From Thermoplasmata archaeon (GTDB lineage: Archaea > Thermoplasmatota > DTKX01 > VGTL01), in assembly GCA_038851035.1 (NCBI GenBank), contig JAWCLH010000017.1:1-56035 (forward strand): DNA of 56,035 nucleotides, read 5' to 3'. The notes under the pieces are model-generated. The model worked only from the letters and a program-made list of their open reading frames with translations. It ran no database searches and had not been told where the DNA came from. Below, one piece after another: positions 13,501-52,969 of this stretch; positions within the stretch are counted from its first letter, which is position 1, and every line of letters begins with the position of its first letter. A program made the position numbers and the translations under genes.

Positions 13501-13754
13501 CCGCTCCTGCAGATGCCGACGGTGGATATTGCCTCTCTTGTCTTGTGCTTCCAGTTCAGCTTGCCCGCGCCGTCGTAGAGGGCAATGTAGCCGTGCTGTC
13601 CGGGGACCATCCCGCCAAGCGCGAGGTACCTGCCACCGCGTGAAAGGCCCAGGGCTAGACCGTAGCCCTCGATGGGCACCCTTGTGCTCTCCTGAGCCTC
13701 CCAGAGCCTCGAGGAGCTCAGCCCTGCGCTCTCGCCTGACTGCACACAGGACAC
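10551..13754 (-). CDS. WD40-like propeller / TPR / zinc-ribbon cytoplasmic scaffold
   Basis: The 1067-residue protein has no signal peptide or membrane helix. Residues about 25-345 form about eight WD40/PQQ-like blades (AISSDGGVVALGSSDHKVYLF type). A helical, Glu/Arg-rich region with TPR-like repeats follows (about 350-1000). The C-terminus is a four-cysteine zinc ribbon, CPRCGNQIP...CFKCGATVK. The start is a GTG at 13754; no ATG lies before residue 49. It is first in an operon with the cPGS-like and PHP genes, which suggests a common process, but its partner is unknown. Propeller plus TPR plus zinc ribbon points to protein or nucleic-acid interaction rather than catalysis. Confidence 0.85.
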   Translation of the reverse strand: MSCVQSGESAGLSSSRLWEAQESTRVPIEGYGLALGLSRGGRYLALGGMVPGQHGYIALYDGAGKLNWKHKTREAISTVGICRSGDYLATASDDNNIYFFGRSGLLEFKHEVGRLVKCLALSENGDFMVAGGEDSNLYFFDRKRQIKKFAWKYRFEDRVVSAAISADGRVTVAGSADRTAAYLDATGQLLWAHEARDSMDAVAISSDGGVVALGSSDHKVYLFSGTGIPLATHDCGAPVSALAMSSRGDCVVAAAGRELICLDAQGLRVWSCSLGANIVKMVASGSADCVLASTGDNVVHFVTRPGFVGWRYSAKGAVYAIAISDDAGLAAFCGPMELVIFDIAQVARELISRHQSAVTVAKKGGHDVSVLEASLRQATAGMGARNYPSTMEALSEVRNGLEALEKIALEREKLRRDTADALSKMILFIDELKAGVEGRGTEGTGVLERPEPRIAELDGLAEKAEASFQSGMFTEALSFIRQAEELVQLIRQERTARAETRKELEAVAERIQEAAKLDVDVSEAKSHLEAARGSLKLGNFREAAELGRKALASLTEARARSPRAMEAELERALEILSSPGVTEVGLAEAQAALELAAPLIIERREFLTLADSYERLAQAWAKRPRGPSTAAAYEKAMRTAMVAYIDAGKPDRAVAIAKQLEDWVTAAKLLTRMGDRDRAGEAWTRAATAKKPKPLVPDELKSRVEGYMAQSRFLDAAEELARAGFLLEASRVLRREKPEARAVALMLRLLFQLQDFETMLEMCREYLPALRREARDTGDSKDLAVYAQVLVGALEVAKLLNSPEEAVLARELDELVQDYTRAIARDELSANELCDRIVLYHHLTERNWKAAERLAELKGGEFWDHIKGALGAWRDVNVYLFREEIHGIARPAAACRHLTQPLPEVVSTGGVHEALSEMAPFNLPLLIFQLLDQYSNREYLGALVRHGDASLAAGRENEAINCYQKALACDTFGLLDTRRINLRLAGIYLQRGGEQEAAPHLEAARAGREAALAEYRAVRGIRAEPPPAPKAAGAAAPSRPSRATCPRCGNQIPVTAIRCFKCGATVK

Positions 13755-19500: not shown

Positions 19501-19969
19501 GGAGGGTCCCGCGGTCGCCGACTATCACGGCAAAGCTCCCATCGGGGCTCCACGCCGCTGCCCTCAGGGCCACGGAGGTCCCCGTCTCCAGACTCGCGAA
19601 CGACGAGCCGTCGAAGAGGAGAAGGGTCCCGGACGCGCCCGCGAGAAGGTACATTGGCCGGGAGGGGTGGGCCGCAATCGCGTGAAGGTCCTCGTCCGTC
19701 CCCGTCGAGAGCGCGCTGAACGATGGAGGCTGGGCGACGCTGAGGAGGAGTGCAGTCCCCCCCTGACCTGCGATCAGCGCCCTGCTCTCGCCCTCTCTCC
19801 AGGCGACCGCGTTGAGGGTGCTGCCGGTCGGGATGGGGTTAAGCCAGACTAGGCTGTCCTCCTCCGCCCTGCCCAACTCGCCGGAGAGGGGCTCTCCGGG
19901 ACCGGCTCCCGTCGGGGCGGCTCCGGAGAGGAAGAGCGAGACAACAATGAATAGCTCCCGGGCCCTCAT
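16562..19969 (-). CDS. Secreted propeller/Ig-like surface protein with C-terminal anchor
   Basis: The 1135-residue protein starts at ATG 19969, chosen over 19987 because GGAGTGA lies 7 bases upstream. The signal peptide is MRARELFIVVSLFLSG. About twelve repeats of roughly 42 residues follow (about 45-600) with the core AVAWRPDGSYALIVG, a beta-propeller of Ycf48/BNR-like type. Three cadherin/PKD-like domains follow (FDGSRSHDPDGDPLMFYWVSS type), then two Ig-like domains, a single membrane helix (VVVGIVAAGLAAGGFVAL) and a basic tail. It probably sits on the outside of the cell membrane. The ligand is unknown. It converges with the ThiI-like gene. Confidence 0.88.
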   Translation of the reverse strand: MRARELFIVVSLFLSGAAPTGAGPGEPLSGELGRAEEDSLVWLNPIPTGSTLNAVAWREGESRALIAGQGGTALLLSVAQPPSFSALSTGTDEDLHAIAAHPSRPMYLLAGASGTLLLFDGSSFASLETGTSVALRAAAWSPDGSFAVIVGDRGTLLVYDTISVRRVESGTGADLRAVAWGRDFALITGAGGFACKFNGSTCAPLSTGVTQSLNAVAFRPDGSYAVVAGGGGAVLGFDGSGFSVLGTAPQKTFYTAAWKRDGTAALIAGLDGATYGASAYLLDSSGLHALECNLTFALRGVVWEPGVDIALLVGSRGLVAEYTGVEFVEIPSTMRSDFSDAAWRPDGSCALIVGSSGRVLRLDGSGLRQLQSPVSAELAAVAWHPGGGYALICGRDGTVLRYNHSSSVIELLETGLGLTVNYTGVSWKPDGSYALLVGDFGKLVAYDGRDFVLKQVGGVNYLDVAWKPDGAYALIGGVSGTLARYEERHLPPPLDFCVTKLTGAGTPATAFFSISWRGGPSPEAMVAGTQGVVARVNDTAVQQLPSDTTDTLYSIDWMPGSGYALAGGVYGKLLLFVSYGFIHPRSGTDISFLDVSFAPDGSHALLVGQSGAVARYTIARRTVPKAVISSPKAHSVFEPGASVYFDGANSTPSFGETLRFEWVSNISGAVGSGPRLRAVLQPGRHLVTLFANDTKGRSGSASVPITVLAPNRAPVPIIDSPADGSLHNDTDEILFDGSRSHDPDGDPLMFYWVSSRDGFLGAEPAFYARLSVGEHRVTLWLSDGPDYNVSATVNITIVPFNRPPVARITQPQNGSTFTTRESVRFDASSSYDEDGDELSFYWVSSLSGHLSSSARFSRSLAEGSHRITVWVDDSRGGNASASVEITVVRANEPPGVSIDFPAEGSVLRGEVEFSGTARDPEGAAVSVQVRLDEGEWQEASVAQGSTAAGVVWSHTVSTRALRNGPHILEARASDGEVFSETASLNFTVHNPEWGFSVSVDFPLNATTVRGRITIAGTASRLGSSIQLVELRIDDGPWRPATGTASWEYIWDTTSLKNGWHRITVRAFDGTDHSPELTLFLKVENPGAEPGRGELTTAVVVGIVAAGLAAGGFVALRSRRKEEKIGERWTTRGEEE

Positions 19970-20053
19970 GAATTCACTCCTGTGCATAGAATTCCTCGGG
20001 CCGATAATAAGGTATTGGTGCAGTGGCCGTATAGAAACCCTCCGAAAAATGTA

Positions 20054-30068: not shown

Positions 30069-30431
30069 CTATCTGTGCCTCCTCCTCAGCGCCAGATAGC
30101 CCGCGGCGGCGGCCCCCGCGATGATTATGATGATTGCCACCAGCAGGAGCCAGTCAGTCTTCTCAGACGGGGTTTGAGGCGGCGGCTTCGGCGGCGAGTA
30201 GCTCAGCACGAGCTCCGTCGTGTTGATATTCCCGGCCGCGTTGCGGGCCTCGATAACAAACCGATTCTCCCCCTTCTCCAGAACTACCGGCAGCGCAAAT
30301 ATTCCCCCGGTGCCGCCGACGGGCTCGCCATTGACGGTCACGGCCGCCCCCGGCTCGCTCTGAATTCTCAGCTCGCCTCTTGTGATCTTCAGGATATTCA
30401 ATGGGGACTTGCCGGCGCAGGTGGCGCTCAC
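30069..30431 (-). CDS. Small C-terminally anchored protein coupled to the Kelch/Ig gene
   Basis: The 120-residue protein starts at GTG 30431, which overlaps the TGA of the preceding gene as GTGA. Residues about 15-45 resemble a PEGA-like motif ([20 protein letters not shown]), then an Ig-like strand pattern ([19 protein letters not shown]), a Pro-rich linker, a membrane helix ([22 protein letters not shown]) and RRRHR. It lacks a signal peptide, so its outer domain could face outward only if the helix acts as a signal, or if it was once fused to the upstream protein. No family is recognised with confidence. Confidence 0.6.
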
Positions 30432-33400
30432 CGGCGCACCCTCCCCGCCCTCCAGCGCCTCCAGAGCCAGAGCGCTCCGGCCGCCCCGAGCGCGCACGCC
30501 ACAATCACCAGCGCCGACAGCGCGGCCCCGGCGAGCGGGCCCCCTTCCCCCGAAGGCCTGTAGACAATTCTCGCCACCGCCTCCGCCTCGTTCCCGGCGC
30601 GGTCGCTCACCACGACATAAACCGTTTTCGTACCGTGGCCGCCCGGTAGCGTCCAGTTCCTCTCCGTGCTGAATGGCTCCCACTCCGTGTAATTGACCCC
30701 GTCATTGCTGAGGCGCATCCTTTCCGGCCCGGAGAGCTCGTCGCTCGCCGATACCGTCAGGCGGACGAGCCTCCGCTCCGTATATCGCGCCCCGCCGTTG
30801 ACGAGGACCGAGACATTCACCGGAGGAGTCCTGTCAATGTAAATCGTCACCCGCGCATCGCGACTGTTCCCCGCAGCATCCAGCGCCCTCACGGTGACCT
30901 CATGGACACCGTCCCCAACTCCCTCCGCCCTCCACGGACTCGTCGCCTTCATGAACGACCCGCCGCCCACCTGAAGCTCGTAGCCCGCAATCCCGCTCAG
31001 CCCGTCGCTCGTGTTGAACCGGACCTCCGGCGGCGTATTTGTCCAGCCCCCGGGAACCACCACGGGCTCGAAGGGCATCGGGGGCGTCCTGTCGACGAGG
31101 GCGGTGGCAGTCCCCTCGACAAAATTCCCGGCCCTGTCGAAGGCCCTCACGACGATTGTGTGGGCGCCATCGCCCAGATTTGCCGGCACGAAGGGGCTGG
31201 TCTGCACAGAGAAGTCCCCCCCGTCCACGCTGACCTCGTGGCGCTCGACCCCGCTCAGGCCATCCTCCGCAACGAAAACAACCACAGGGTCCCCGTTCGT
31301 CCATCCGGAGGGCTCCACCGAGAGCCCCAGAAATTCCGGGGCCGTCCTGTCGATATATACAGTGACATTAGCTTCGCGGAAGTTTCCCGCGCGGTCGTGG
31401 GCCCTGACGACGACGTTGTGGGTTCCGTCGCTCAGGTCAGGAAGGACGCACGGGCTACTATGGACAGTGAAGGGCCCGCCGTCCACGGAGACCTCGTAGC
31501 GCTCGACTCCGCTCAGCCTGTCCTCCGCATTGAAGAATATCTGCGGAGCGCTCCTCGTCCAGCACGGGGGGGACGCCAGCGGCTCGAAGGGCTCCGGAGG
31601 GCTCCGGTCTATGTATATCTCCACCCTCCCGTCCCTGAAGTTCCCGGCCCTGTCAAAGGCCCTGACCACGACCTCGTGAGCGCCCTCGCCCGGGTCGGGC
31701 GGCGTGAAGGGGTTCTCCTGAAACGCGTAGGCCTCGCCGTCGATGAAAAACTCGTAGCGGTCGATGCCGCTTGCGTCGTCCGATGTGGAGTAAGAAATGG
31801 ACGGAACCACACTCGTCCAGCCGGAGGGCGCGGCCTCCGGAGCGAAGGGGCGGGGGGGCGTCGCGTCCAGCCAGAGCTCGCGCGCCTCGCTGAACGGCCC
31901 CCAGTCGCCGTCCCTGTCCCTCGTCCTGACCCTCCAGTACCAGACGCCGTCCTTGATTGAAATGGAGGGGGCGTGGGAGGTGTTCCCCGACTCGACCTCC
32001 CCGCTCGTGTACAGCGCCGGGGAGAATTTCAGGCTCCGGTCGAGCTGGAGTTCGTAGCCGCCCTGTACGGAGGAGTCGGCGTCTCTGAATATCCATGTAA
32101 AAACCGGCCTGCTAACATTGGTCCATTTCTTTTCCGGTGGACTCACCAGCGCGGGCGCCTCGGGAATGCGATTGTATGTTATGACAACTTTATATAGCGA
32201 GGGCGTCAGGGACTGGTTCTCCGTCTTCAAAAGCGCCCTGTACTGGAACCACCTCGCGCCGTGCGGGACGCCATGGATTGTGGAGTTCTCGGTGTAATAT
32301 GAATCGGGAGTTCCGTCCGGGCCGACGAAGTCCGCAGACTGGAGCGCGCTCTCGCTCTCAGCCGCGCGGAGCTGGAAGAGAATGGAGGTCCCGGGCGGCG
32401 CGGCCGCTGTCCAGCAGAGCGCCACAAGCCGCGAGGGGCCGCCGAGGTCGAGGTAGGGGGAGCGGTAGGTGCCGTTCCAAAGGTAGGGAGAAAAGCTGTA
32501 GACCCACGTATCGTTCAGCACATTACCGCTTGAAAAATTATAGCCTCCGAATAAAACGACAAGGTCTTTATTTTTTACCGGCGCCATCGCAGTCGTACTC
32601 CGGCCCGGCGGTTTGTCTGATGGTTCTCTTAAATACCATTGATCATCCCCGGCGTCATATATCCATGTTTCCGCCCAGTCAATATTTGGAGCAAGCAGGC
32701 AGCCCCCGAACATGATGGCTTTATCATCAAAAAATACGGTCGCTTCCGTTTGCCTCCATCTGGCAGAAGGAGGGTTCGATTGCGACCGCAGGCTCCACCT
32801 GTTCTCGCTTGTATCATATACCCAAGTCTCATTCGTGAATTCATAATCGTTATATCCGCCGAACATTACAAATTTATCGTCATTCCATATAGCAGCCATT
32901 GAATGATCACTTCTTTTTCCGGGATTGCCTTCAGTAGCAAGAAAGCACCATTGATTTGTCTTGATATCGTATCTCCAGAAATCCGAGAGATATCCTCCAG
33001 CATGGGCTCTACCTCCGTAAAGAAAGATTCCGGAGTCATTAATGCTCGAGGCCATGGCATGCCCCCAGCGAGAGGGATAGGGGTGAACGCCGGTGTCGAT
33101 AAGAAACCATTGATTCTCACTCAGGTCGTACACCCATGTTCCATTGATATTCGAATCGGTCATATTGTTCGAATGCCCGCCGTAAAGCACCACCTTATCG
33201 TCACCCCAGATGGTCGCCATCGCGTGAGCGTATCTTCCTGAGGGGTCGCGCGGGGGAAACGTGTGGGTCCAGGTATTTTCGCTCAAATCGTAGACCCATG
33301 TGTCATTGAGTAGAATCCATCCGCTGTATTCTTTGCTCAGTCCTCCATAGAGGATTATTTTATCGTCATTGCCGATCGCGGCCATCGCGTGCCAGCACCT

Positions 33401-33658
33401 TGGAGCGGGAGAAACCGACGGGGCCCTTTCTTTCCAGACCCCCGTCAGGTTGAGATCTAGTTCAATGCGGGCGTCGGTGCCAGTGCCTCGGATCAGACAA
33501 TTCTCAAAGAGGCAGCCCGTTCCATTGAAATCCATGTCATTGCTCGTTATTGTCGGAGATATTGTCGAATGGTCTGAGGAACTTTCCAGAGATGTCGTTA
33601 AGGATGCGAATAGTATCATATGCGCCATCATCAATATTTGTGCTCTCCTGCGCGGCAT
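30428..33658 (-). CDS. Secreted Kelch-repeat / Ig-like surface protein
   Basis: The 1076-residue protein has a signal peptide (about 6-22), then about six Kelch repeats (80-400) with cores such as HAMAAIGNDDKIILYGG and NDTWVYDLSENTW. After a linker region and an FN3-like segment (about 505-610) come five Ig-like repeats (about 610-1030) of the form SGVERYEVSVDGG..HNVVVRAHDRAGN, then a single membrane helix and [10 protein letters not shown]. It is probably an external, membrane-anchored protein. The Kelch half is AT-richer than the Ig half. GGAG lies 3-4 bases before the ATG. Confidence 0.88.
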   Translation of the reverse strand: MPRRRAQILMMAHMILFASLTTSLESSSDHSTISPTITSNDMDFNGTGCLFENCLIRGTGTDARIELDLNLTGVWKERAPSVSPAPRCWHAMAAIGNDDKIILYGGLSKEYSGWILLNDTWVYDLSENTWTHTFPPRDPSGRYAHAMATIWGDDKVVLYGGHSNNMTDSNINGTWVYDLSENQWFLIDTGVHPYPSRWGHAMASSINDSGIFLYGGRAHAGGYLSDFWRYDIKTNQWCFLATEGNPGKRSDHSMAAIWNDDKFVMFGGYNDYEFTNETWVYDTSENRWSLRSQSNPPSARWRQTEATVFFDDKAIMFGGCLLAPNIDWAETWIYDAGDDQWYLREPSDKPPGRSTTAMAPVKNKDLVVLFGGYNFSSGNVLNDTWVYSFSPYLWNGTYRSPYLDLGGPSRLVALCWTAAAPPGTSILFQLRAAESESALQSADFVGPDGTPDSYYTENSTIHGVPHGARWFQYRALLKTENQSLTPSLYKVVITYNRIPEAPALVSPPEKKWTNVSRPVFTWIFRDADSSVQGGYELQLDRSLKFSPALYTSGEVESGNTSHAPSISIKDGVWYWRVRTRDRDGDWGPFSEARELWLDATPPRPFAPEAAPSGWTSVVPSISYSTSDDASGIDRYEFFIDGEAYAFQENPFTPPDPGEGAHEVVVRAFDRAGNFRDGRVEIYIDRSPPEPFEPLASPPCWTRSAPQIFFNAEDRLSGVERYEVSVDGGPFTVHSSPCVLPDLSDGTHNVVVRAHDRAGNFREANVTVYIDRTAPEFLGLSVEPSGWTNGDPVVVFVAEDGLSGVERHEVSVDGGDFSVQTSPFVPANLGDGAHTIVVRAFDRAGNFVEGTATALVDRTPPMPFEPVVVPGGWTNTPPEVRFNTSDGLSGIAGYELQVGGGSFMKATSPWRAEGVGDGVHEVTVRALDAAGNSRDARVTIYIDRTPPVNVSVLVNGGARYTERRLVRLTVSASDELSGPERMRLSNDGVNYTEWEPFSTERNWTLPGGHGTKTVYVVVSDRAGNEAEAVARIVYRPSGEGGPLAGAALSALVIVACALGAAGALWLWRRWRAGRVRR

Positions 33659-36636: not shown

Positions 36637-38229
36637 TCAGGAGCCGGCCTGGAGGAGCGAGACCAGCCCCCGGAGCGGGATGTCAACAAGACGCGGCCTG
36701 TGGCGGGCCTCATAGAGGATTTCGTAGAGCGCCTTCTGAATCATCCAGACGCGGACGGACACCATGAGCCCCCTCATCCCCTTCCTTCTCACCGAGCGCG
36801 GGCAGGAGGAGAGGTATCCTTCGACAAAAGCATCGGAGACCCCCTTCTCCCAATCCGCCGCGCGGGCCTCCGCCTCCCTCCACGACGCACCCGTGGGGTG
36901 GAATTCTCCTTCGCCGCCTCCTGCCCCTTCCCCCGCATCCTTCCCCGGAAACCTCCCGCCTCTTCCCTGCCCCGCGCGAGCGGCCCTGAGGGCCAGAGCG
37001 GAGGCGTATGAGAAGGAGCGGAGCATCCCCGCCACGTCCCTCTCGGGCGGAAGCCTCTCGACGCGCCTTGCGCCTCGCCTGAGGGGCTCACCCTCGAAGT
37101 CCAGAAACCTGAAGCCGCGCGGGCATATCAGGACCTGCGCGAGATGCATGTCTTGATGTGTCCGAATCTTCAGCCCTCCGGGCCAGCGCTCCATCGGGAG
37201 GAGGGCTTCCTCAACCGTCCCCCGGGCAGCCTCGAGCTCCCTGCGGCGCCATCCGCGCAGGGCGGAGACGGCCCTTCCGTAGTCGCCGAGGATTTCGTCC
37301 CTCCACCTCGCCACATCGTCCCGATCGATGATACCGGGCCGGAGCTCCGGCGGAGCGCGCGTTGAGCTGAGCTGGCTGTGCAGCTCGCCCAGCGCCATCC
37401 CGAGCCTCCCCGGAACGCACGTGTGGTGGCCCAGCCCGCGCCGAATCGCCCTGCGCGCGTTGCCTACGAAGGCTGGAAGGGCCGGGAAGCCCTCGATGTG
37501 CTCGATGAGGATCGCGGCGCACAGGGGCCTGCCCCCGGGAAAACCTCCCTCTGGGTGGTGGGGCGCAAGCGAGGCCGGCTCCTCCGGAGGCCGGGAGACC
37601 ATTGGAGAGCCTGGAGCCCCGGAGGGGCTGGAGGTAGCGGCCTGTCCTCCCCCAGCGGGCTCGAAAAAAGCCTCCCCGAGGACGCGGGGCGCGAGACGCG
37701 CGCCCCTCTCCGTCAGAAAAGCGAGCATCTCCGGCTCCGGGTTGAAGGGGTCGAGGCGTCTGTAGCTCTTGAGCACAACCCTCCGCCTCCCGATGCAAAA
37801 GGAGACGAGGGCGTTGCTGGTGTCGCCGCCGAGCGCCTCAGGCCGGCCCGCACGGCCGCGCGGGAGCTCCCTCATCCTCCACACAACCCTCCCGCGATCG
37901 CCCGCGCTGGTCCGGCCCGCCCTCATGCTCTCCACGACGAATGAGACGAACTCGGGGGTGGTCTCGGCCTCGCGGAACCACATTCCCGCGCTCCGGAAGG
38001 GCCCGGGGCCCGCAAGGCGCTCCGGAGAAGCGACGAGAGAGACGAAGCGGAGGTCAGGATCGGGCGGGAAGGACAGGACGGCACAGAAGAAGAACGCCCC
38101 GCGCCTCTCGAAGAGGGGGACGATCGCGTGAACCTCAACCTGCTCCGCGCCCCCGCACCCCGACCAGCGCGCGGCGGCGAGGTGCCTCGCCGAACCCCTC
38201 AGCGCGGCCTCAACAACATCCTCATCCAT
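36637..38229 (-). CDS. Maltokinase-like (Mak/Pep2 family) kinase
   Basis: The 530-residue protein matches maltokinase, which makes maltose 1-phosphate from maltose and ATP. Features are an N-cap region, LVSFCIGRRRVVLKSYRRLD (K154), a catalytic loop HQDMHLAQ (358-365, D360), the metal motif FLDFEGEP (D377, E379) and the C-terminal signature QKALYEILYEARHRPRLVDIPL (in part). A Pro/Gly-rich insert (about 190-235) is unusual, as is a Gly-rich insert in the last third. ATG at 38229 follows CAGGGGA. It is the last gene of the glucan cluster. Other sugar kinases of this fold are possible, but the tail signature favours maltokinase. Confidence 0.85.
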   Translation of the reverse strand: MDEDVVEAALRGSARHLAAARWSGCGGAEQVEVHAIVPLFERRGAFFFCAVLSFPPDPDLRFVSLVASPERLAGPGPFRSAGMWFREAETTPEFVSFVVESMRAGRTSAGDRGRVVWRMRELPRGRAGRPEALGGDTSNALVSFCIGRRRVVLKSYRRLDPFNPEPEMLAFLTERGARLAPRVLGEAFFEPAGGGQAATSSPSGAPGSPMVSRPPEEPASLAPHHPEGGFPGGRPLCAAILIEHIEGFPALPAFVGNARRAIRRGLGHHTCVPGRLGMALGELHSQLSSTRAPPELRPGIIDRDDVARWRDEILGDYGRAVSALRGWRRRELEAARGTVEEALLPMERWPGGLKIRTHQDMHLAQVLICPRGFRFLDFEGEPLRRGARRVERLPPERDVAGMLRSFSYASALALRAARAGQGRGGRFPGKDAGEGAGGGEGEFHPTGASWREAEARAADWEKGVSDAFVEGYLSSCPRSVRRKGMRGLMVSVRVWMIQKALYEILYEARHRPRLVDIPLRGLVSLLQAGS

Positions 38230-38460
38230 TCCCCTGTGCCCCTTTCGCTCCATGGACGCCAACGCCCTGCGGAATACGCTGCCGGTTCAGTCCCGCAATC
38301 GCCTCCCTTTCACTCTCCGCACCGAATCTCCTCCCTCACCCCCTCAGCGCGTGCCCCTGCCGCTCTATCAGCACCTCCGACCGCTTTTTTCTCCGCGCCG
38401 GCGCATTTCGCTCCTCTGGGAGCCGGTGCCCGCCACTCATCCGGACCGCCTCCCGACCCC
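38230..38460. other. 231-base C-rich spacer between GT4 and maltokinase genes
   Basis: No gene is supported. The minus strand is purine-rich and lacks a good TATA box, so the maltokinase is probably read from the upstream cluster transcript. Confidence 0.3.
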
Positions 38461-39735
38461 TCAGACCCTCCCGCAGAGCCGCCTATAGATGTCGAGGGTC
38501 TTCCTTGCAGCGATGTCCCATGTGAATCGCCTCTCCACCCTCTCCCTCGCTCGTCGCGCGAATCTTTCCCTCAGCTCTTCGTCGCCGAGGAGGCGGCTGA
38601 CCGCTTCCGCGAGCGCGCGCGAGTCCCCGGGAGGGACGAGGAAGCCGCTCCTCCCGTCCTCGACGATTTCGGGAATTCCGCCGACGCGAGACGCGACCAC
38701 GGGAGACCCGCAGGCCATCGCCTCCAGAACAACGAGGCCGAAGGGCTCGTAGAGCGAGGGGGTCACCGAGACCGACGCGGATGAGTAGAGGGCCACGAGC
38801 TCCCTCCTGTCGAGCGCGCGGTTGAGCCAGACGACGTCCCTCCTTCCCTTCAGCAACCCCGCCAGCTCGGCCACTATGCCGGGCTCGTCGGGCCTGCCCG
38901 TGGCGAGGACCGTCTGAGTCCCGGGCGGGAAGCCCCGGGAGGCCTCAACCAGCACCTGAACGCCCTTCTGGCGGGTCAGCCTGCCGACGAAGAGGACGTA
39001 GGGCCTCCCGACGCCGCACCTTTTCAGGACCCTCATGTCCTGCGAGGGCCTGAAAACGCGCGGGTCGATGCCGTTGTGCACGACCGATATTTTTGAGGGG
39101 GGGATGGGGTAGCACCTCGTTATGTCCCTTTTCATTCCCTCGGAAACGGCAATGACTCGGTCGCAGGCGAGCAGGCCCTCCCGCTCCATCCATTTGCTCA
39201 GCTCGTAGCCGCGGCCTAGCTGCTCGGCCTTCCAGGGCCTCAGGGGCTCCAGACTGTGGACGGTCGCGACCGCCGGAATTCCGTAGAGCTTCTTCGCGAG
39301 CGCGCCCGCGAGGTTCATGTACCATGTGTGCGAGTGGACGATGTCGCAGTCCATCGGGTCGGAGACGAGCTCGATGTCCAGCCTGAGGGCGTCGAGGGCG
39401 GGCTGATGGGAAGGCGGGCTGGCGGAGTACGTCACCGCTCTCGGCACCATCCGTCCCCCGTCGGGACAGGAGCGCCTCCTCCGCGCGCTCCCGCCACCAC
39501 CGCCGGAGCTCCTGACAGCCGCGGGCAGCTTTCCTCGCCCCGCTCCGGCTCCGCGCCCCCAGAACTCCTTTCCGTATCTCCTCACTCCCCTCTCCCCGCG
39601 CGCCCCGGGGACCCAGAGCGTCCTGACCTCCACATCAATATGCCTCGAGAGGGCGGAGGCCATCGCCGCGACGTGGTGGCCGACGCCGCCGTAGACGTTG
39701 GGCGGGTACTCGAGTGAGAGGATGCAGACCTTCAT
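38461..39735 (-). CDS. GT4 glycogen synthase / maltose-1-phosphate synthase (GlgA-Coryne/GlgM-like)
   Basis: The 424-residue glycosyltransferase has the GT-B fold: [21 protein letters not shown] at the N-terminus (in part), [23 protein letters not shown] and the donor-site motif [18 protein letters not shown]. This is the actinobacterial GlgA type, whose mycobacterial member GlgM joins ADP-glucose and glucose 1-phosphate into maltose 1-phosphate. A Gly/Arg/Ser-rich insert (about 45-95) is atypical. ATG at 39735 is chosen because upstream codons look non-coding. It is flanked by branching enzyme and maltokinase genes. Confidence 0.85.
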
Positions 39736-39878
39736 GGCGCCACACGGCTCAATGCGGCTGGACGCTATTAAGGGTTGCCTGGTGGGGTACAGAGCGGGGG
39801 CGCCGGGGCTCCCGAAGGCGGTCCGGAGCAGCAGGCCGGGTATGTGATCGGGGGCAGCCTCGCAAGCGCGCTTTCGGT

Positions 39879-41513
39879 CTAGATGTACAGACCGGGCTCC
39901 AGCCACGGGAAGATATTGTCCATATCCCTCAGCCTATCGAGCTCGGCCTGCCCCTGGCCCTCGACCGCGGCCCTGAGCGCGGCGAAGCGCTCCAGATGCC
40001 CCCTGAACCTCTCCACGGCGTACTCTCTCGCCTGGAACGTCGAGACGAGGAACTCCCAGTCGCTCGCCTCGAGCAGCATCAGCTCGCGCGCGGCCTGAGC
40101 GAGCAGCTCCCTCTTCGAAGGGTCTCCCGAGTGGCGGCGCGCCGCCTCCTCCATCCATCGCTCGGCCTGATGGATTTCCCTCCACATCCACTCCGTGTCC
40201 GGGTTGAGCCAGACCCTGTGGTCCCCGCCCGCGCCCCACGAGCTCTCCGGCAGGGATATCTCCTCCGAGGGCGGGTGCTCCGCGAGATACGCGCCGCACG
40301 AGAGCGCCTCGACGCCCGCGGCCGGGAGCTTCTCCAGAACCATCGTCAGCCACCTGACGCCCTCGTACCACCAGTGCCCGAATAGCTCGAGGTCGTAGGG
40401 AGCGACGATGACCGGCGCCCCCTCGCCCGCGTGCTCCTTTAGAAGGGAGGCCGCGAGCCCGGCGAAGTGCGCGCTGTGCTCCTCGAGCCTCGGCCCGACT
40501 TTATCCGGCTCGTAGAGCTGCTTCGTCCCGAGGTCGCGGGACTGCCTGTCGGTCACCCTCCAGTACTGAAGGCCGCTGACGGAATCCCTCTTGTGGAACT
40601 CGCGGTACCAGCCGTCGCCGGGGTAGCCCCAGTCCGCGCTCCAGACCTGCAGCCCGGTCCTCTCGTTCCTCCCAAGCACGGCGACCGGTGTGCCCCCGGA
40701 GCCTACGATATAGGGCCTGAAGGTGCTCCTCCCCGAAGGGGCCCTCTCGACGCTCCCGTCCGGTCCCCGGGGCCTCGCCAGGAATGGGAACCTCTCCCAG
40801 TAGACCCCCCCGGCCCTCCCGCCCTCGATCGTGTGATGGTCGACAATGAAGTACCGAATTCCCTCCTCTGCAAGAAAGCTCTCGAGCCCCGGCCTCTGAA
40901 CCTCGCGCCCGCTCCCCGGCTCCCTCCACACTCCCGCGGGCCTGTAGCCGCACTCGGGGAGCCAGATGCCCTCCGGGTTCTTGCCGAAGGCCCTGCGGTG
41001 CGCCTCCGTCCCAGCCCGAATCTGGGCCCGAATCGCGCTCTCGGTCCCGAGCAGGGGGAGGTAGGCGTGGGTTGCGGCGGATGTCATCAGCTCGACCCTG
41101 CCCTCCTCTTCTAGTTTCCTGAATTCGCCCGCGAGGTCTCTGCCCATCCTGTCCCTGAAGTCGACGAGGGTGGAGTGGTAGCGGGTCTCGTACATCTGAG
41201 CCAGCGCCCTCCTCTCGGGCCTGTCCCTGTGGCGGTCGACGTCCTTGGCGCAGAGATCGATTCTGTGGTAGAGGTACTGCTCGAACCTTTGCTTCATGTA
41301 GCCGTCGCAGAGCTGCTCGAGGAGCACGGGTGTCAGGCTGATCGTGAGGAGGGGCCTGCGGGGTCTGGGGATCGACTCGAGCGCCCTGAGGACGGGGATG
41401 TAGGAGCTGGCCATGACTTCGAAGAGCCACTCCTCGCCGAATGGCCAGACGCCCGCCTTCCTCACATAGGGTATGTGGGCGTGGAGGACGAAGCTCAGGG
41501 CCCCTTCGCTCAC
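39879..41513 (-). CDS. GH57 1,4-alpha-glucan branching enzyme
   Basis: The 544-residue protein is a GH57 branching enzyme with a DUF1957-type helical C-terminal domain. HAHIPY (11-16), the nucleophile region WLPECGYRP (E187) and the acid region APYDLELFGHWWYEG (D374) are intact. The enzyme forms alpha-1,6 branches in glycogen-like glucan. It starts with GTG at 41513, overlapping the stop of the mutase-like gene (GTGA). The GT4 gene follows 143 bases downstream. Confidence 0.92.
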   Translation of the reverse strand: MSEGALSFVLHAHIPYVRKAGVWPFGEEWLFEVMASSYIPVLRALESIPRPRRPLLTISLTPVLLEQLCDGYMKQRFEQYLYHRIDLCAKDVDRHRDRPERRALAQMYETRYHSTLVDFRDRMGRDLAGEFRKLEEEGRVELMTSAATHAYLPLLGTESAIRAQIRAGTEAHRRAFGKNPEGIWLPECGYRPAGVWREPGSGREVQRPGLESFLAEEGIRYFIVDHHTIEGGRAGGVYWERFPFLARPRGPDGSVERAPSGRSTFRPYIVGSGGTPVAVLGRNERTGLQVWSADWGYPGDGWYREFHKRDSVSGLQYWRVTDRQSRDLGTKQLYEPDKVGPRLEEHSAHFAGLAASLLKEHAGEGAPVIVAPYDLELFGHWWYEGVRWLTMVLEKLPAAGVEALSCGAYLAEHPPSEEISLPESSWGAGGDHRVWLNPDTEWMWREIHQAERWMEEAARRHSGDPSKRELLAQAARELMLLEASDWEFLVSTFQAREYAVERFRGHLERFAALRAAVEGQGQAELDRLRDMDNIFPWLEPGLYI

Positions 41514-42304
41514 CGGCCCACCCCCACGTTGCTGTTCCGGGGCCTGAAGTCCTTCAGGAAAAGGAGCAGGTCCTTGAGTCCGTGCCTCTCGTCCAACTTC
41601 TCCCCTGAGGCGCTGTACACCTCGACAACGTCGACGAACCTCAGTCCGAGGTGGGGCCTCTCGCGCCTGAGCGCCTCTAGGAATTCCTCCTTAGGCCTCG
41701 GCTGTCCGTAGCCCGAGACGAGGCCGTTGAAGAGCTGGACTTTCATCCCGTACTTCTCGAGAAGCCCCGGGACGAGGGCCGCGAGAGGCGTGGTCTGGCA
41801 GTCCGCCAGAATAGAGAGGGGGTTCCTGAAGGATATCTCGGAGTAGAGGCACTCGATGTAGTCCTCGATGCCATTGGGGTAGTAGAGAATTGTCCCTAGG
41901 TCCATGAGGCTGACCGTTCGCCGGCCGCCCCCACCTCCATCCCTCCCCTCGCCCGCCATCAGGCTCATGATTCTCCGCACGGTCTCGGGGTCCGCGGGCT
42001 CGCCCCGGCTGTTGTAGAGGCTCACGCCCACCTTCGAGCCGTCGAAGAAGACATAAATTCCAGCCCCCATGCCCTGCTTCCTGACCTCGTACCTGAGCAC
42101 CTCCTCGGGCACGAGCCTCATGTCCAGCACCGAGACCCCCAGACTCGCCAGCCCTACCGTCAGCGCCCTCCTGACCAGCCTCGAGACCGGTCGGCCGTCG
42201 GTGCCGGTCATCACCATCGCGTTCTGCCCCATCCAGGAGCCCAAGGCCAGCCCGAGCTCCAGGCACTCCCTCGCATCACAGGTCTCGCTCTCGTATATCC
42301 TCAT
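41510..42304 (-). CDS. Degenerate phosphohexomutase-like protein (two domains only)
   Basis: The 264-residue protein matches the first two domains of phosphoglucomutase/phosphomannomutase: GTDGRPVSRLVRRALTVGLAS near the start (in part) and GIEDYIECLYSEISFRNPLSI later. The catalytic TASHNP loop is replaced by MGAGIYVFFDGSKVG, and the DGDGDR metal loop by FVDVVEVY. Domains 3 and 4 are missing. It is therefore almost certainly not a mutase. In cyanobacteria and actinobacteria a similar dead mutase domain is fused to a sugar-nucleotidyltransferase; here it is a separate gene 42 bases after one. A regulatory or oligomerising partner role is inferred. Confidence 0.75.
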   Translation of the reverse strand: MRIYESETCDARECLELGLALGSWMGQNAMVMTGTDGRPVSRLVRRALTVGLASLGVSVLDMRLVPEEVLRYEVRKQGMGAGIYVFFDGSKVGVSLYNSRGEPADPETVRRIMSLMAGEGRDGGGGGRRTVSLMDLGTILYYPNGIEDYIECLYSEISFRNPLSILADCQTTPLAALVPGLLEKYGMKVQLFNGLVSGYGQPRPKEEFLEALRRERPHLGLRFVDVVEVYSASGEKLDERHGLKDLLLFLKDFRPRNSNVGVGR

Positions 42305-42346: not shown

Positions 42347-43432
42347 TCACTGGTCCGGTATCATCACCGTCCCCGGGCCCAGCCTGGAGCCGTACCACAG
42401 CTTTATATTTGTTCCTATCCTGCAGCCCTCACCCACGATGCACCTGTCGCCGGCGACGCAGCCCGTCTCGAAGAGCGTGCCGGGGCCGAGCTCGCAGCCC
42501 TCGCCGATGATCGTCTCCCTGAGCCGCACGCCGTCGCCGATCCTCGTCCCGGACCACACTATCGACCTCGATATCTCCACGTTCTTCCCGACCTCGACGT
42601 CGTTCCCGAGTATCGCGAAGCCGTCGACATGGATGCTGCCGTGAATCACGCAGTTGCGGCCGCTGATGAGAGTCCTCTCGCCGTTCGTGAAGGGCGCGCC
42701 GCGGGGGTGGAGGCCCCTGAGCCTGAGCTTTCCCTTAAGAGCGTCCTCGCTCGCGGAGAGGTAGGTCCCCGGGAGGCCGAGGTCGTTCCAGTACTCGGAG
42801 AACTCGTAGCCGTACACCGGCGCATCCTTCTGAATCAGTCTCGGGAAGAAGTCCCTAGAGAAGTCGAACCGTGTGCCGGGGGGTACCTCCCTGAAGGCCT
42901 CCGTTTCGAGCACGTAGACCCCCGTGTTCACGGTGTTGCTGAACGCCTGGTCCCGGGAGGGCTTCTCTAGGAAGCGCCTTATCCTCTTCTCCTCGTCCAG
43001 AAGGGCGATGCCGTACTGGCAAGGGTTATCGACCCTCGAGAGGGCGATCGAAGCGATTCCGCCCTTGCTCTCGTGAAAGGCGATGAGCTCCCTCAGGTTC
43101 AAGTTGGTCACGATATCGGCAGAAACAACGAGGAATGGCGAGTCGAGCTCCCTGACGATTTTATTGCACGCGCCGGCGGTTCCATAGGGCTCGTTGTCCG
43201 TGTAGTAACCGATGCGCAGCCCGTATCTCGAGCCGTCGCCGCAGTGCCTCATCAACTGCTCCTGCATGTAGTCAACCAGCATGAATACCCTGTCGGCCCT
43301 CAGCCGAGCGATATCGTGGAGAATGTAGTCGATCAGGGGGGTGTTGAGGAAGGGAATCATGGGCTTGGGCCTGCTAACCGTCAGAGGAAGGAGCCTAGTG
43401 CCCCTCCCGGCCGCCATCACAACGACGTCCAT
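42347..43432 (-). CDS. Sugar-1-phosphate nucleotidyltransferase with LbH repeats
   Basis: The 361-residue protein has an NTP-transferase domain with AAGRGTRLLPLTVSRPKPM at 7-25, VVSADIVTN as the metal-binding Asp motif, EKPS and TGVYV. A left-handed beta-helix of hexapeptide repeats follows (IHGSIHVDGFAILGNDVEVG type). Such enzymes make GDP-mannose, dTDP-glucose, UDP-glucose or ADP-glucose. In this cluster an NDP-glucose donor for the GT4 enzyme is most likely, but sequence alone does not fix the base or sugar. It is the first gene of the cluster, and ATG at 43432 is supported by the canonical N-terminus MDVVVMAAG. Confidence 0.88.
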   Translation of the reverse strand: MDVVVMAAGRGTRLLPLTVSRPKPMIPFLNTPLIDYILHDIARLRADRVFMLVDYMQEQLMRHCGDGSRYGLRIGYYTDNEPYGTAGACNKIVRELDSPFLVVSADIVTNLNLRELIAFHESKGGIASIALSRVDNPCQYGIALLDEEKRIRRFLEKPSRDQAFSNTVNTGVYVLETEAFREVPPGTRFDFSRDFFPRLIQKDAPVYGYEFSEYWNDLGLPGTYLSASEDALKGKLRLRGLHPRGAPFTNGERTLISGRNCVIHGSIHVDGFAILGNDVEVGKNVEISRSIVWSGTRIGDGVRLRETIIGEGCELGPGTLFETGCVAGDRCIVGEGCRIGTNIKLWYGSRLGPGTVMIPDQ

Positions 43433-48324: not shown

Positions 48325-48432
48325 TCACCGCCGGCCGCCCCTCTCCTCCACCGGCACCACCTCCGCGTCCGACATCTCGATGGTCTCGGGGTCCTCCTTC
48401 CTGGCGTACTCGGAGAGGATGCTATCCCCCGG
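48325..48432 (-). pseudogene. Short C-terminal coding remnant upstream of the rps12 promoter
   Basis: A frame without a start codon reads NPGDSILSEYARKEDPETIE then MSDAEVVPVEERGGRR and stops at 48325, just before the rps12 promoter. Its composition looks like a real charged protein tail. Its 5' part is missing, and the frame is entered from the end of the large FN3 gene. It may be the tail of a former upstream operon neighbour cut off by a rearrangement. I cannot name the family. Confidence 0.35.
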
Positions 48433-51400
48433 GTTTTTTCATCGTCAACGAGCCATCTGCGTCCTTGTTACGAATATAATTATGGATAACGATATAGGCC
48501 CCGCCGGCCAGGAGGAGCGCCAGAGCGACCCAGACCAGCCAGGGAGCTCCGCCAACAACGGTGACAACGTCCCTGCCGGGCGGCTCGGGCCCGGGGCCAC
48601 CCTTCAGGGTCCTGAAGGTCATGTCTCCGCTCGGAGGTGCCCAGTTCCCTGTGGCATCCCTGGACAATACCCTGAAGTGGTAGGTCGTCCCGGGCAGGAG
48701 GCCCACTAACTGGACAGAGTGATTGAAGACCAGCACGCCTGAACTCTGCGAGCGGCCGTAGTGGATGTCCGGACCAAACTCTACCAGGCTGTCCGAGGGC
48801 TCGTCGGTCGTCCAGCGGATGATGGCGGTCGTGTCGGTAATATCCACCACGACGATGTCCGTGATTACGGGCGGCGTCGTGTCTGGCACGGCGCCTGTGA
48901 CGAATATGAATTCGGGACTGATCGAAGGTCCATTGCCCCAGATATCGGTCGACAGCACTCTGAAGTAGTACTGGGTGGAGGGGGAGAGGCCGCGGAGCAC
49001 AAGGCTGTGGAAAAAAGTATGGGATGGGTCGCTCGCCCTCAGGCCGTGGATGGTGGAGTTGCCGAACTCAACCTCGCTGTCGGCGAGTTCATCTGTGTAC
49101 CAGGTCACGACCACTCTGTCCATGGAGACGCCTGCAACCTGCACCCGGCTTATCACGGGTGGGGTGATATCGGGTGCCGCGGGCATCCTCCTGGTTCTGA
49201 AGCTGATCTCGGGACCTGTGGCAACGTTACCGCTGGCGTCGCTCGAGCGAACGCGTACATGATATATCGTATCGGGCCGGAGGCCCAGCAGCAGGAGGCT
49301 GTGGCGCAGGACGAGGGCACCGTCAGCCGTGGTCATGCCGTATGAGCCCGCCGGACCGAACTCGACGAAGCTGTCCGAGGGCTCGTCGGTCTCCCACACG
49401 ACCACCGCGGATACATCGGCGACGCTTTCGATGCTGATTCCAGAAATAACCGGAGGGGTAGTGTCGGGAACTTCGGCGGTGGTGAAGCTCATATCCTCAC
49501 TGGATGAGGGCCCGTTGCCGGTGGCGTCCCTTGACATTACGCGAAAATGATACGTCGTCGCGGGCAGGAGTCCGGACAGCCTGATCTCGTGCAGACGGAC
49601 CAGTCTGCCATCCCTGACGCTCAGCCCGTAGGCGGCCGTGGTTCCGTACTCCACCAGGCTGTCGGCTGGCTCGTCGGTCTCCCAGGAGACCACGGCCATC
49701 CTGTCGGTGATGACGCTGACCCTGACGCTGGATATAATCGGTGGGGCTGTGTCGGGCGCCGAGAGAGTTCTGAAAGTATAGTCCCCGCTCCTCGCGGGTC
49801 CGTTCCCGCTCGGATCTCGCGACTCGACCCTGAAGTGATAGACCGTTGACGGCGAGAGCTCCCGGAGCACGATACTGTGCTTCAGAACGAAATTACTCTC
49901 CGAAACACTGAGGCCGTAGGAGGTGGTCAAACCGTAGTGCACGGTGCTGTCGGCGGGCTCGTTGGTGACCCAGCTTATAACGGCCAGCCTGTCAGTGACG
50001 CCGGACACGCTGACGCGGGTGATGAACGGCGCTATCGTATCAAGACCGGCCGCAGTGATGAAAATATAGTCCCCAGAGTAGCTCGCGGGATTTCCCGCCC
50101 TGTCCCTGGAGGAAACCCTGAAGTGATAGGTTGTGCTCGGGCTCAGTCCCTTCAGCGTGAGCGAGTGGGCAGTGGCAAAGACCTCATCCTTCAAAGACGA
50201 GCCGTAGGAACCCGTCAGGCCCCACTCCACGCCGCTGTCCGCCTCCTCGCTCGTCTCCCAGATGACTGTGGCCGATGTGTCGGTTATGCCGACGACCTGC
50301 ACATTCGATATCAGCGGGGGAATCGTGTCAAGCACGATGGTATCTGTGGCCGGTCCGGCGATGTTCCCCGCCCTGTCCCTGACCCTGAAATAAATCGTCT
50401 TGAGACCGTCCCCGGCGGGGAGGGTGTGGACCTTCGTCTCAGTGAACTCCTCCCACTCGCTCCACCCCGTCCCGTCGTCGCTTAGCTGCATGGCATAGAC
50501 CCCGGAGGCGGGCTCTGGGTCGTCGGCTTCGAGCGTCAGGGTAACAGACCGTGAGGTGGTGTATGCGGCGCCATTGTTAATCACGACGCTGAGCCGGCCC
50601 GGTTCAACCCTGTCCAGAAAAATCGTGTCGTTGAGCGGCCCCCCGATGTTGCCGGCTCTGTCCCGGACCTGCAGATGCACGGCCTTCAAACCGTCCGTGT
50701 CGGTGCCACCAGTTCCGTTTACAAGGCTCCAGTTGCTCTTGCGCGCAGTGAATGGCTCCCAGAAACCCAGAAAGCTCTCGCTGTTTGCGATAGACATTTC
50801 CGAGATCCCCGAGGACGGGTCCCGGTCCTGGCCCATAACTGTGAGACTGACGATACTCTCGTTTGTGAACTCCGCCCCGTCATTTATCATCAGTCCGAGC
50901 TGCTCCGGAGGGCGCCGATCCAGAAATATGCTCGAATTAACCGGACCGCCCACGTTTCCGGCGCGGTCCTGAACCCTGAAATACACTGTCTTTTTTCCGT
51001 CGCTGTCCGTGCCCCCGGCACCGTCCGTCAGGGACCAGACGGCGCTCTCCCGCCAGTCCGTCCAGTTGGAGTAAATGATGCCGTCGTTGCTGAAGGCCAT
51101 CCTCCACAGGCCCGAGCCGGGCATCGGGTCCCTCGCACCGAGTGTGAGCTCCACCTCCGCCGAGGAAGTGTACGGGGCGCCCCCATTGATCACAATGTTC
51201 AATCTATCGGGAGGAACGGTGTCGATCCTGATCGGACCGAAATGTGTGGCCGTGGTGTTCCAGTTGAGCGCATTGTCGCGGGCCCTTATATGAAAATAAT
51301 AACTTTCGCCGTCGGGAAGGACCGGGCTGCTCGCGTCGTGCACCGTCTCCTCGCAGCTCTTCAGAGCCGGGGGAACCGTGGTTGCATTCGTGTCCCAGAC

Positions 51401-52741
51401 ATATGAGTAGCCGTCTATGCCGCTCCGGTCGCTGCCCCGGTCCGCCCACATCACATGGACCACATTCCTTGCGTACCATTCCCCGGGAACAGGATGGGTG
51501 TCGCTTGTAACCACCGGATTGCGCGGCGGGGAAAGGTCATTGATGAACTCGTATGCGTGGCCATCCGCACACGCACCATAAATGCCGTTAATGGAATCAT
51601 TATAAAAGGAGGCGAGCGCAATAGAGTTCATGGCGTCGCTCCCGGAGCCGACCCCGATTGAGTTCCAGGAATCTGTGCCAGCATCATACGAAAGCTGGAG
51701 AACCTGACCGTCTACTCTGCTTATATAAACCTCGTTTTTGCCATCTCCATTCCCATCTCCTATACATATATCATAAATGAACATAACTCCGGCCGTATAT
51801 ATGACCCGATTGCCCCATGAATGGGACAGTTTGTCATATTTAAAACAATACACGGTCTGGTTTATGTATGAGATGGAATAGATTTCATTGTTAAAATCAT
51901 TATCCCCATCGCCTAAAGCTATATCGGTCATTCCGAAAGTTATGGATTGCCATGTATTATTTTCCCCCTCCCCGACTTTGGTAATGTTCCACATTGACCC
52001 ATTGTATTTGAATTGATAGACATGATTGTTGGTGGTTGATGCATATATCTCATTTTTACCGTCATTGTCACCATCGCCCAGTGTAATGCCTGTCACCATT
52101 GGAATCTCCCAATTTGCGCCCATTTTGAATTGGGGCACGGCTCCTATGCTCTGTTGATCCCATAATGTTCCTTTTTTTGAATATTTATAAATTTCACCGT
52201 TTACATTTCCACCATACAACTCGTTTTTTCCATCATTATCACCATCGCCGACGCAAATATCTTTAAGCCATGGATAGGTATCAATCTCAGTCCTCTTCCA
52301 TGCTGTACCATTATAATAAAATTGACATAATATGAATTTGTAGTCTTCCTTCGGTGAGCTTTTATAATAACCACTCACATAGAGTTCACTCAATCCATCA
52401 TCGTCTCCATCGCCAAAAGCGATTGCTGTCCACCCAAACATACTGGCGTCAGCTATCGCGCCTATGCTCCTGCTGGACCAGCCATCTTCACAGTAATTAA
52501 ATTCATATATTTTACCATCATCACAACAAATAAAATATGCCTCGATTTTACCATCGTGATTCCCATCTCCTACGCACACATCGGTCAAACCTTCATTCGC
52601 CGCCATATTATAGGGCTTCCCCAAATCGGTCTTGCACCAATAATCCGCAGGAAGGGGTGGTGTTGAGAAGAGAATATGTCCCGTTAGAAGGAGAGTGGTC
52701 AGCACAGCATATCTCGTTGGAGCCTTAAGCCCGATTTGCAT
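48422..52741 (-). CDS. Secreted VCBS/FG-GAP, Ig-like and FN3 surface protein
   Basis: The product is about 1439 residues. ATG at 52741 is chosen over GTG 52750 because AAGGTGA lies 5 bases upstream of it. A signal peptide (about 8-30) is followed by about seven FG-GAP/VCBS repeats (55-400) with VGDGNHDGKIEAYF and LGDGDNDGKNEIY cores. Ig-like segments (about 410-810) come next, with RAGNVGGPVNSSIFLDRRPP-type ends. Six FN3-like repeats of about 92 residues (about 815-1370) show TPPVISGISI..AVVVWETDEPSDS..VEFG. A membrane helix (WLVWVALALLLAGGAYIVI) and basic tail close it. The propeller half is AT-rich and the FN3 half GC-rich. Confidence 0.88.
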   Translation of the reverse strand: MQIGLKAPTRYAVLTTLLLTGHILFSTPPLPADYWCKTDLGKPYNMAANEGLTDVCVGDGNHDGKIEAYFICCDDGKIYEFNYCEDGWSSRSIGAIADASMFGWTAIAFGDGDDDGLSELYVSGYYKSSPKEDYKFILCQFYYNGTAWKRTEIDTYPWLKDICVGDGDNDGKNELYGGNVNGEIYKYSKKGTLWDQQSIGAVPQFKMGANWEIPMVTGITLGDGDNDGKNEIYASTTNNHVYQFKYNGSMWNITKVGEGENNTWQSITFGMTDIALGDGDNDFNNEIYSISYINQTVYCFKYDKLSHSWGNRVIYTAGVMFIYDICIGDGNGDGKNEVYISRVDGQVLQLSYDAGTDSWNSIGVGSGSDAMNSIALASFYNDSINGIYGACADGHAYEFINDLSPPRNPVVTSDTHPVPGEWYARNVVHVMWADRGSDRSGIDGYSYVWDTNATTVPPALKSCEETVHDASSPVLPDGESYYFHIRARDNALNWNTTATHFGPIRIDTVPPDRLNIVINGGAPYTSSAEVELTLGARDPMPGSGLWRMAFSNDGIIYSNWTDWRESAVWSLTDGAGGTDSDGKKTVYFRVQDRAGNVGGPVNSSIFLDRRPPEQLGLMINDGAEFTNESIVSLTVMGQDRDPSSGISEMSIANSESFLGFWEPFTARKSNWSLVNGTGGTDTDGLKAVHLQVRDRAGNIGGPLNDTIFLDRVEPGRLSVVINNGAAYTTSRSVTLTLEADDPEPASGVYAMQLSDDGTGWSEWEEFTETKVHTLPAGDGLKTIYFRVRDRAGNIAGPATDTIVLDTIPPLISNVQVVGITDTSATVIWETSEEADSGVEWGLTGSYGSSLKDEVFATAHSLTLKGLSPSTTYHFRVSSRDRAGNPASYSGDYIFITAAGLDTIAPFITRVSVSGVTDRLAVISWVTNEPADSTVHYGLTTSYGLSVSESNFVLKHSIVLRELSPSTVYHFRVESRDPSGNGPARSGDYTFRTLSAPDTAPPIISSVRVSVITDRMAVVSWETDEPADSLVEYGTTAAYGLSVRDGRLVRLHEIRLSGLLPATTYHFRVMSRDATGNGPSSSEDMSFTTAEVPDTTPPVISGISIESVADVSAVVVWETDEPSDSFVEFGPAGSYGMTTADGALVLRHSLLLLGLRPDTIYHVRVRSSDASGNVATGPEISFRTRRMPAAPDITPPVISRVQVAGVSMDRVVVTWYTDELADSEVEFGNSTIHGLRASDPSHTFFHSLVLRGLSPSTQYYFRVLSTDIWGNGPSISPEFIFVTGAVPDTTPPVITDIVVVDITDTTAIIRWTTDEPSDSLVEFGPDIHYGRSQSSGVLVFNHSVQLVGLLPGTTYHFRVLSRDATGNWAPPSGDMTFRTLKGGPGPEPPGRDVVTVVGGAPWLVWVALALLLAGGAYIVIHNYIRNKDADGSLTMKKPGG

Positions 52742-52969
52742 CCTTTTCACCTTTCTGCCAAATAATAAATAATATAATAATACGACATATATAATTTATG
52801 GTATACTCTTTTTATCATAAGAGAATTTTGACACAATATCCTCGCGACAGCCCTTCCCAACCATAGTGATATGCTCTACATGTATTGAATTTCCTGTTCT
52901 TAGGACAACAATGAGCATATCGGCACAGTCATCAGTGAATTAACTTTCTTGTTCATATGAAAGCCCCAC
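52742..52969. promoter_or_regulatory. AT-rich region upstream of the VCBS/FN3 gene
   Basis: Several TATA-like words lie at about 52760-52805 on the minus strand. Farther from the gene, GATATGCTC (52868-52876) and GAGCATATC (52913-52921) form a 9-bp inverted repeat, possibly the terminator of the pseudogene that ends at 52970. No gene is seen. Confidence 0.4.

What the first reader, a model, noticed from the sequence alone, without database searches (positions are those of the whole stretch)
41510..42304. Catalytically dead two-domain phosphohexomutase as a separate gene beside its nucleotidyltransferase
Both active-site loops (TASHNP, DGDGDR) are gone and domains 3 and 4 are missing, yet the gene is intact and tightly linked. 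In other lineages a dead mutase domain is fused to the C-terminus of the same type of nucleotidyltransferase. The split form suggests a conserved non-catalytic role such as allosteric control or oligomerisation.
Basis: partly seen in the sequence, partly recalled or inferred. Interest (0 to 1): 0.5.

Follow-up and report, generated by a model that had tools for sequence, protein, structure and literature searches.

The report
Conserved dead mutase partnering a nucleotidyltransferase
A small protein that looks like the front half of a sugar-phosphate mutase but has lost its catalytic loops is kept by two archaeal lineages, usually beside an enzyme that makes activated sugars, so it probably controls enzymes rather than acting as one.

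Summary
In detail: 41510-42304(-) encodes 264 aa with a phosphohexomutase fold, both catalytic loops gone, domains 3-4 missing. It is not decay: standalone copies occur in 13 Thermoplasmatota genomes and in 93 of 115 genomes of a Thermococcales-containing phylum, with low dN/dS outside the window's own family. A fused bacterial form exists (NTase plus dead four-domain mutase), often behind glgC-type genes. Split and fused forms share an Arg pair (D-x5-R-x3-R) in 74/74 and 7/7 sequences against 0/59 true mutases, though three named bacterial fusions and a divergent fused group lack it. T. kodakarensis appears to be one of the 29. Best reading: a pseudoenzyme regulator in sugar-nucleotide/glycogen metabolism, needed by this NTase but with at least one other client. 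Physical interaction was not shown.

The parts
41510..42304 (-). dead two-domain phosphohexomutase-like protein, 264 aa
42167..42199 (-). D36..R42..R46 signature (D-x5-R-x3-R) shared with bacterial fused forms
   Evidence: 74/74 split, 7/7 fused, 0/59 true mutases
42029..42055 (-). residues 84-92, remnant where the catalytic serine loop should be
   Evidence: alignment; no SH[NM]P in 74 of 74 split sequences
41615..41641 (-). residues 222-230, remnant where the metal loop DGDGDR should be
   Evidence: alignment; no D.D.D[RK] in 74 of 74 split sequences
42347..43432 (-). sugar-1-phosphate nucleotidyltransferase with left-handed beta-helix tail, 361 aa; longer ORF listed to 43900
39879..41513 (-). 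GH57 branching enzyme, catalytic motifs present, start overlaps the mutase stop
38461..39906 (-). GT4 glycogen synthase (TIGR02149 414 bits, cut-off 302); the true start is probably further in
36637..38262 (-). maltokinase-like protein (TIGR02457 E 4.8e-42, below its cut-off)

Best explanation
The gene encodes a pseudoenzyme: the first two domains of a phosphohexomutase kept as a protein-binding regulatory or assembly subunit. Shown: it has the fold, lacks the catalytic loops and domains 3-4, is conserved across two archaeal phyla, and lies directly after a sugar-1-phosphate NTase gene in all 13 Thermoplasmatota loci. Shown in Thermococcales: that NTase is never found without it, while it is often found without the NTase. 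Inferred: it binds the NTase, probably building or tuning its oligomer, with the R42/R46 face as partner- or anion-binding site, and so sets NDP-glucose supply for glycogen; and it has at least one further client. A candidate second client is a paralogous NTase found in 7 of 7 genomes examined.
For: Fold and lost loops. Conservation: 13 Thermoplasmatota genomes and 93 of 115 genomes in the phylum of G503. NTase adjacent in 64 of 64 Thermococcales genomes that have it. Purifying selection. Fused bacterial forms. Shared Arg pair. Glycogen context: GH57 and GT4 in the window, glgC-type gene directly before 4 of 6 fused genes, alpha-glucan phosphorylase gene near 16 of 20 NTase-lacking Thermococcales loci. 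NTase losses with intact mutase. Paralogous NTase clade in 7 of 7 genomes. Precedent for a mutase fold acting by binding: GlmM inhibits CdaA (abstract).
Against: No contact shown: joined model pTM 0.47. 29 of 93 genomes keep the mutase without this NTase, so the NTase is not its only reason to exist. Split and fused NTases are not sisters in the best tree. The Arg pair is lacking in two Streptomyces and one Sulfuricurvum fusion and in five divergent fusions. No glycogen gene follows in 6 of 13 Thermoplasmatota loci. Window against L005 dN/dS is 0.371.
Confidence: 0.5

Rival explanations
1. Its main job is independent of nucleotidyltransferases: a metabolite sensor or binding protein (for a sugar phosphate or nucleotide, through the Arg pair) that acts on other enzymes, the NTase being a later or occasional neighbour.
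For: 29 of 93 Thermococcales genomes keep it without the NTase; dN/dS stays low there, e.g. L216-L238 0.020; the gene stays beside tmk in 20 of 20 and beside PEPCK in 19 of 20 such loci.
Against: The NTase is never seen without it (64 of 64), and bacteria fuse the same kind of module to an NTase.
Confidence: 0.28
2. It is an enzyme with a different chemistry, the Arg pair being part of a new active site.
For: Invariant residues beyond fold needs (R42, R46, R63) and strong constraint.
Against: Only two domains, no active-site cleft between four domains; T. kodakarensis TK1404, which I infer to be this protein, is reported without PGM/PMM activity (passage), which does not exclude other activities.
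Confidence: 0.1
3. It is a decaying relic of a full-length mutase.
For: Loss of catalytic loops and two domains; window against L005 dN/dS 0.371.
Against: Same truncated form in two phyla, dN/dS mostly 0.02-0.15, intact where the neighbouring NTase is a pseudogene.
Confidence: 0.02
4. A read-through fusion: the single in-frame TGA between NTase and mutase in the window is partly read through to give one long protein.
For: In window, L005, L042, L043 and L075 one TGA alone separates the two frames.
Against: In the other 8 of 13 Thermoplasmatota loci the genes are in different frames.
Confidence: 0.02

Closest known systems
Bacterial 'sugar phosphate nucleotidyltransferase' fusions (815-860 aa; Streptomyces, Nonomuraea, Sulfuricurvum, phylum of G511)
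   Same: NTase with beta-helix followed by a dead mutase module; partly the same Arg pair; often beside glgC-type genes
   Different: One polypeptide and all four mutase domains; no description of the dead module found in the papers searched
T. kodakarensis TK1404 (identity inferred)
   Same: Member of this split family: 236 aa, between tmk and PEPCK
   Different: No adjacent NTase; annotated as phosphomannomutase, only TK1108 of the three tested showed activity (passage)
GMPPA-GMPPB and ADP-glucose pyrophosphorylase large subunits
   Same: A non-catalytic protein tuning a sugar-nucleotide NTase of the same fold as this NTase (role recalled; chains listed)
   Different: There the regulator is a dead NTase paralogue, here a dead mutase
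GlmM-CdaA complex (7OLH, 7OJS, 9G69)
   Same: A phosphohexomutase acting as binding inhibitor of another enzyme (abstract); high in the fold list
   Different: GlmM is itself an active, four-domain enzyme; the client is a diadenylate cyclase
PGM5/aciculin (6Y8X-6Y8Z)
   Same: Mutase-fold protein with a non-catalytic role (recalled); in the fold list
   Different: Animal, four domains, adhesion-related (recalled)

Membership tests
Active alpha-D-phosphohexomutase | phosphoserine loop (T/S-A-S-H-N-P) | tested here: not met
   0 of 74 split sequences, window included
Active alpha-D-phosphohexomutase | metal loop (D-x-D-x-D-R) | tested here: not met
   0 of 74 split sequences
Active alpha-D-phosphohexomutase | domains 3 and 4 present | tested here: not met
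   264 aa; no Pfam domain III hit and sequence aligned to domains 1-2 only
Phosphohexomutase fold superfamily | domain 1-2 fold and sequence relation | tested here: met
   PF02878 over cut-off; Foldseek E 1.7e-18; VIA Z 25.6, rmsd 3.9, 253 aligned
NTase + dead-mutase fusion family of bacteria | same polypeptide as the NTase | tested here: not met
   separate genes; 8 of 13 loci out of frame
NTase + dead-mutase fusion family of bacteria | common ancestry of the dead module | tested here: inconclusive
   shared D-x5-R-x3-R but unrooted mutase tree; NTase union not rejected, p-AU 0.247
Regulatory subunit of an NTase (GMPPA-like role) | physical complex with the NTase | tested here: inconclusive
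   joined AlphaFold2 chain pTM 0.47 on 9 sequences
Regulatory subunit of an NTase (GMPPA-like role) | change of NTase kinetics or effector response | not testable with these tools
   needs purified proteins

The most novel reading that the evidence does not exclude
An ancient archaeal family of stand-alone pseudomutases is a general control protein of sugar-nucleotide supply. It has swapped mutase chemistry for a new Arg-pair site that senses an anionic metabolite or docks partners, and it serves more than one nucleotidyltransferase; the same module was joined permanently to an NTase in bacteria. A T. kodakarensis protein annotated as phosphomannomutase (TK1404) would be its best experimental handle.
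Probability: 0.3. Interest if true: 0.7.

Novelty: new variant of a known kind. Interest (0 to 1): 0.5.

Why it matters
Archaeal glycogen metabolism and its regulation are described as mainly unexplored (passage of PMC11046441). A conserved dead mutase that an NTase seems to need, but that outlives it, is a testable regulator in T. kodakarensis, which has genetics (recalled). It also corrects the annotation of about a hundred genomes in which a mutase-like gene cannot be an ordinary mutase.

Tried and rejected
Stop-codon read-through fusion: the single in-frame TGA looked striking in the first four loci, but 8 of 13 loci are out of frame.

Decay: contradicted by conservation and dN/dS.

The first single-sequence scan of genome contigs found no relative.

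The plasmid search with the window protein gave one record, a Priestia plasmid whose match is an ordinary GlmM-like mutase. The search with a fused domain gave 15 records, of which I opened 5: two Streptomyces, Nonomuraea and Sulfuricurvum are dead fusions, Priestia is the true mutase.

The joined-chain structure (pTM 0.47) says nothing on the interface.

Papers: no description of the split pair, or of the dead mutase in the fusions, came up in searches; the library holds open-licence PMC papers only. Seen: passages and one section of PMC11940775, one passage of PMC11921379, passages of PMC11046441, outline with abstract of PMC8573169; all others as search listings only. Cyanobacterial fusions are recalled, not tested.

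Full report
Observation. The ORF at 41510-42304(-) encodes 264 aa. Pfam sees only domain I of the phosphohexomutases (E 4e-11). phmmer against the PDB aligns residues 7-257 to mutase residues 24-274, and AlphaFold2 on 36 natural relatives gives pLDDT 92.5 and pTM 0.87. The nearest solved folds are phosphohexomutases (Foldseek E 1.7e-18, TMq 0.76; VIA Z 25.6, rmsd 3.9, 253 aligned). None of 74 distinct split sequences has the serine-loop or metal-loop motif, and no domain III is recognised in the window protein, L067 or L216. The VIA ranges reach chain residue about 362, so a terminal element may occupy a place of domain 3; only end points are given. The genome has two other mutases with the loops, on other contigs.

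Surroundings. On the same strand follow, in order, the NTase (my start 43432; 361 aa, aligned), the dead mutase, a GH57 branching enzyme whose start overlaps the mutase stop, a GT4 glycogen synthase over the TIGR02149 cut-off, and a maltokinase-like gene below its cut-off. The NTase reaches no NCBIfam cut-off among the 25 best rows shown; glucose-1-phosphate as substrate is inferred from context.

Relatives. Thirteen Thermoplasmatota genomes carry it: G000, G004, G252 and G255 (4 of 292 genomes drawn from the phylum) and nine more in a profile search (11 strong hits in 300 genomes of one class, two already known). In all 13 the NTase lies directly 5' (in L073 only its tail is on the contig). 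A GH57-like gene is directly 3' in 7 of 13: window, G004 and L067-L071. Of these the window and L067 were Pfam-tested and positive, L070 has no Pfam hit, and the others rest on alignment. None follows in L042, L043, L072, L073, L074 and L075 (L072 and L073 lie on contigs of about 4 kb).

Thermococcales. Two named loci (L077, L078) led to a phylum search: 93 of 115 genomes have a strong match (E 1e-36 or better, open frames of 234-277 aa). I dropped the weaker rows, which lie in longer frames of full-length mutases. The orthologous NTase (E up to 1e-80) is in 64 of 115; all 64 are adjacent to the dead mutase and none occurs without it. In 29 of 93 the dead mutase stands without that NTase. I looked at 22 of these 29. 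Three show remnants: L239 (353 of 361 codons, 3 stops), L237 (252 codons, 4 stops) and L247 (83 codons, no stop in the piece); 19 show none. On a quick tree of 64 Thermococcales sequences plus two outgroup rows, NTase presence needs 7 changes, at least 3 forced by starred branches, and one group of 15 lacks it wholly. That tree has 24 weak forks.

Selection. dN/dS by my own NG86 script: median 0.06 in 82 pairs with NTase, 0.10 in 32 mixed pairs, 0.042 in 10 pairs without (range 0.016-0.217; pairs with dS 0.05-1.0 only). L247, with an NTase remnant, against its sister L254 with NTase: 0.027; L237 against L239: 0.020 at dS 1.1. In Thermoplasmatota: L042-L043 0.073, L069-L071 0.089, L073-L074 0.146, but window-L005 0.371 (other pairs there are too distant). 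The window's own lineage is therefore less clearly constrained.

Known organism. G615 has a contig of 2,088,737 bases, the T. kodakarensis genome size. Its dead mutase lies next to the PEPCK gene, which is TK1405 (passage). PMC11940775 lists TK1404 among four ORFs annotated as phosphomannomutase; it says TK1777 is a phosphopentomutase and that of the remaining three only TK1108 showed PGM and PMM activity (passage). I infer that TK1404 is this protein; the primary assay paper was not available.

Fused forms. Of 59 genomes in the phylum of G511, 17 have a match at 1e-60; in seven (G518, G519, G521, G522, G535, G540, G542) the match runs through NTase and mutase in frames of 815-860 aa. Pfam on one (L224) gives NTase, beta-helix and mutase domains I-III. 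The catalytic motifs are absent in 7 of 7 distinct fused rows. In 4 of 6 loci fetched with flanks a glgC-type gene lies directly 5'; Pfam was run on the two genes of L223. Named examples are annotated 'sugar phosphate nucleotidyltransferase'.

Shared signature. D-x5-R-x3-R early in domain 1: 74/74 split, 7/7 fused, 0/59 true mutases. Nonomuraea has it too. Two Streptomyces fusions, the Sulfuricurvum fusion and five divergent fusions (L191-L195) lack it.

Trees. Mutase domains: split (100/100), fused (100/100) and true (98/96) are each one group, unrooted, with the true mutases mostly archaeal. NTases: split NTases are one group (100/99), apart from the bacterial group holding the fusions. Joining split, all fused and the three nested mutase-less rows is not rejected (p-AU 0.247). 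A narrower grouping is rejected (p 0.0015), but it cuts through nested rows. One origin or two stays open.

Mechanism. A partner that the NTase seems unable to do without, but that can do without the NTase, is best read as a regulatory or assembly subunit with more than one client. A second NTase group with one member in each of 7 of 7 genomes searched (G000, G255, G306, G602, G606, G615, G617; support 93/84) is a candidate client; whether genomes without the dead mutase have it was not tested. The joined model gave pTM 0.47 on nine sequences: no evidence for or against contact. GlmM inhibiting CdaA (abstract) shows that the fold can act by binding.

Verdict. Observation confirmed; interpretation half right; a new variant of pseudoenzyme control, interest 0.5.

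Noticed in passing
L067 6533-8188, L068 6860-8461, L069 4071-5687, L070 6894-8243, L071 7125-8663: In one Thermoplasmatota family (f50) the GH57 branching-enzyme-like gene after the pair has lost the residues aligned to the WLPEC and APYD catalytic motifs of the window's GH57, in 5 of 5 loci: a second likely pseudoenzyme in the same cluster.
   Followed up: partly
L239 3780-4858, L237 about 3013-3756: NTase pseudogenes with frameshifts and stops beside an intact dead mutase in two Thermococcales genomes.
   Followed up: yes
L187, L189, L190: Bacterial NTases nested among the fused ones that lack the mutase part; L189 and L190 also end in a shortened beta-helix. Possible loss of the fused module.
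   Followed up: no
L045 and L044 (G004 contigs C80 and C78): The two contig ends carry the same end of the dead mutase, so the NTase-mutase-GH57 order is split by an assembly break.
   Followed up: partly
window 4509-8408, 10551-13754, 16562-19987, 30428-33658, 48422-52750: Several very long ORFs of 1067-1442 aa, some with signal-like N-termini, possibly large surface proteins.
   Followed up: no
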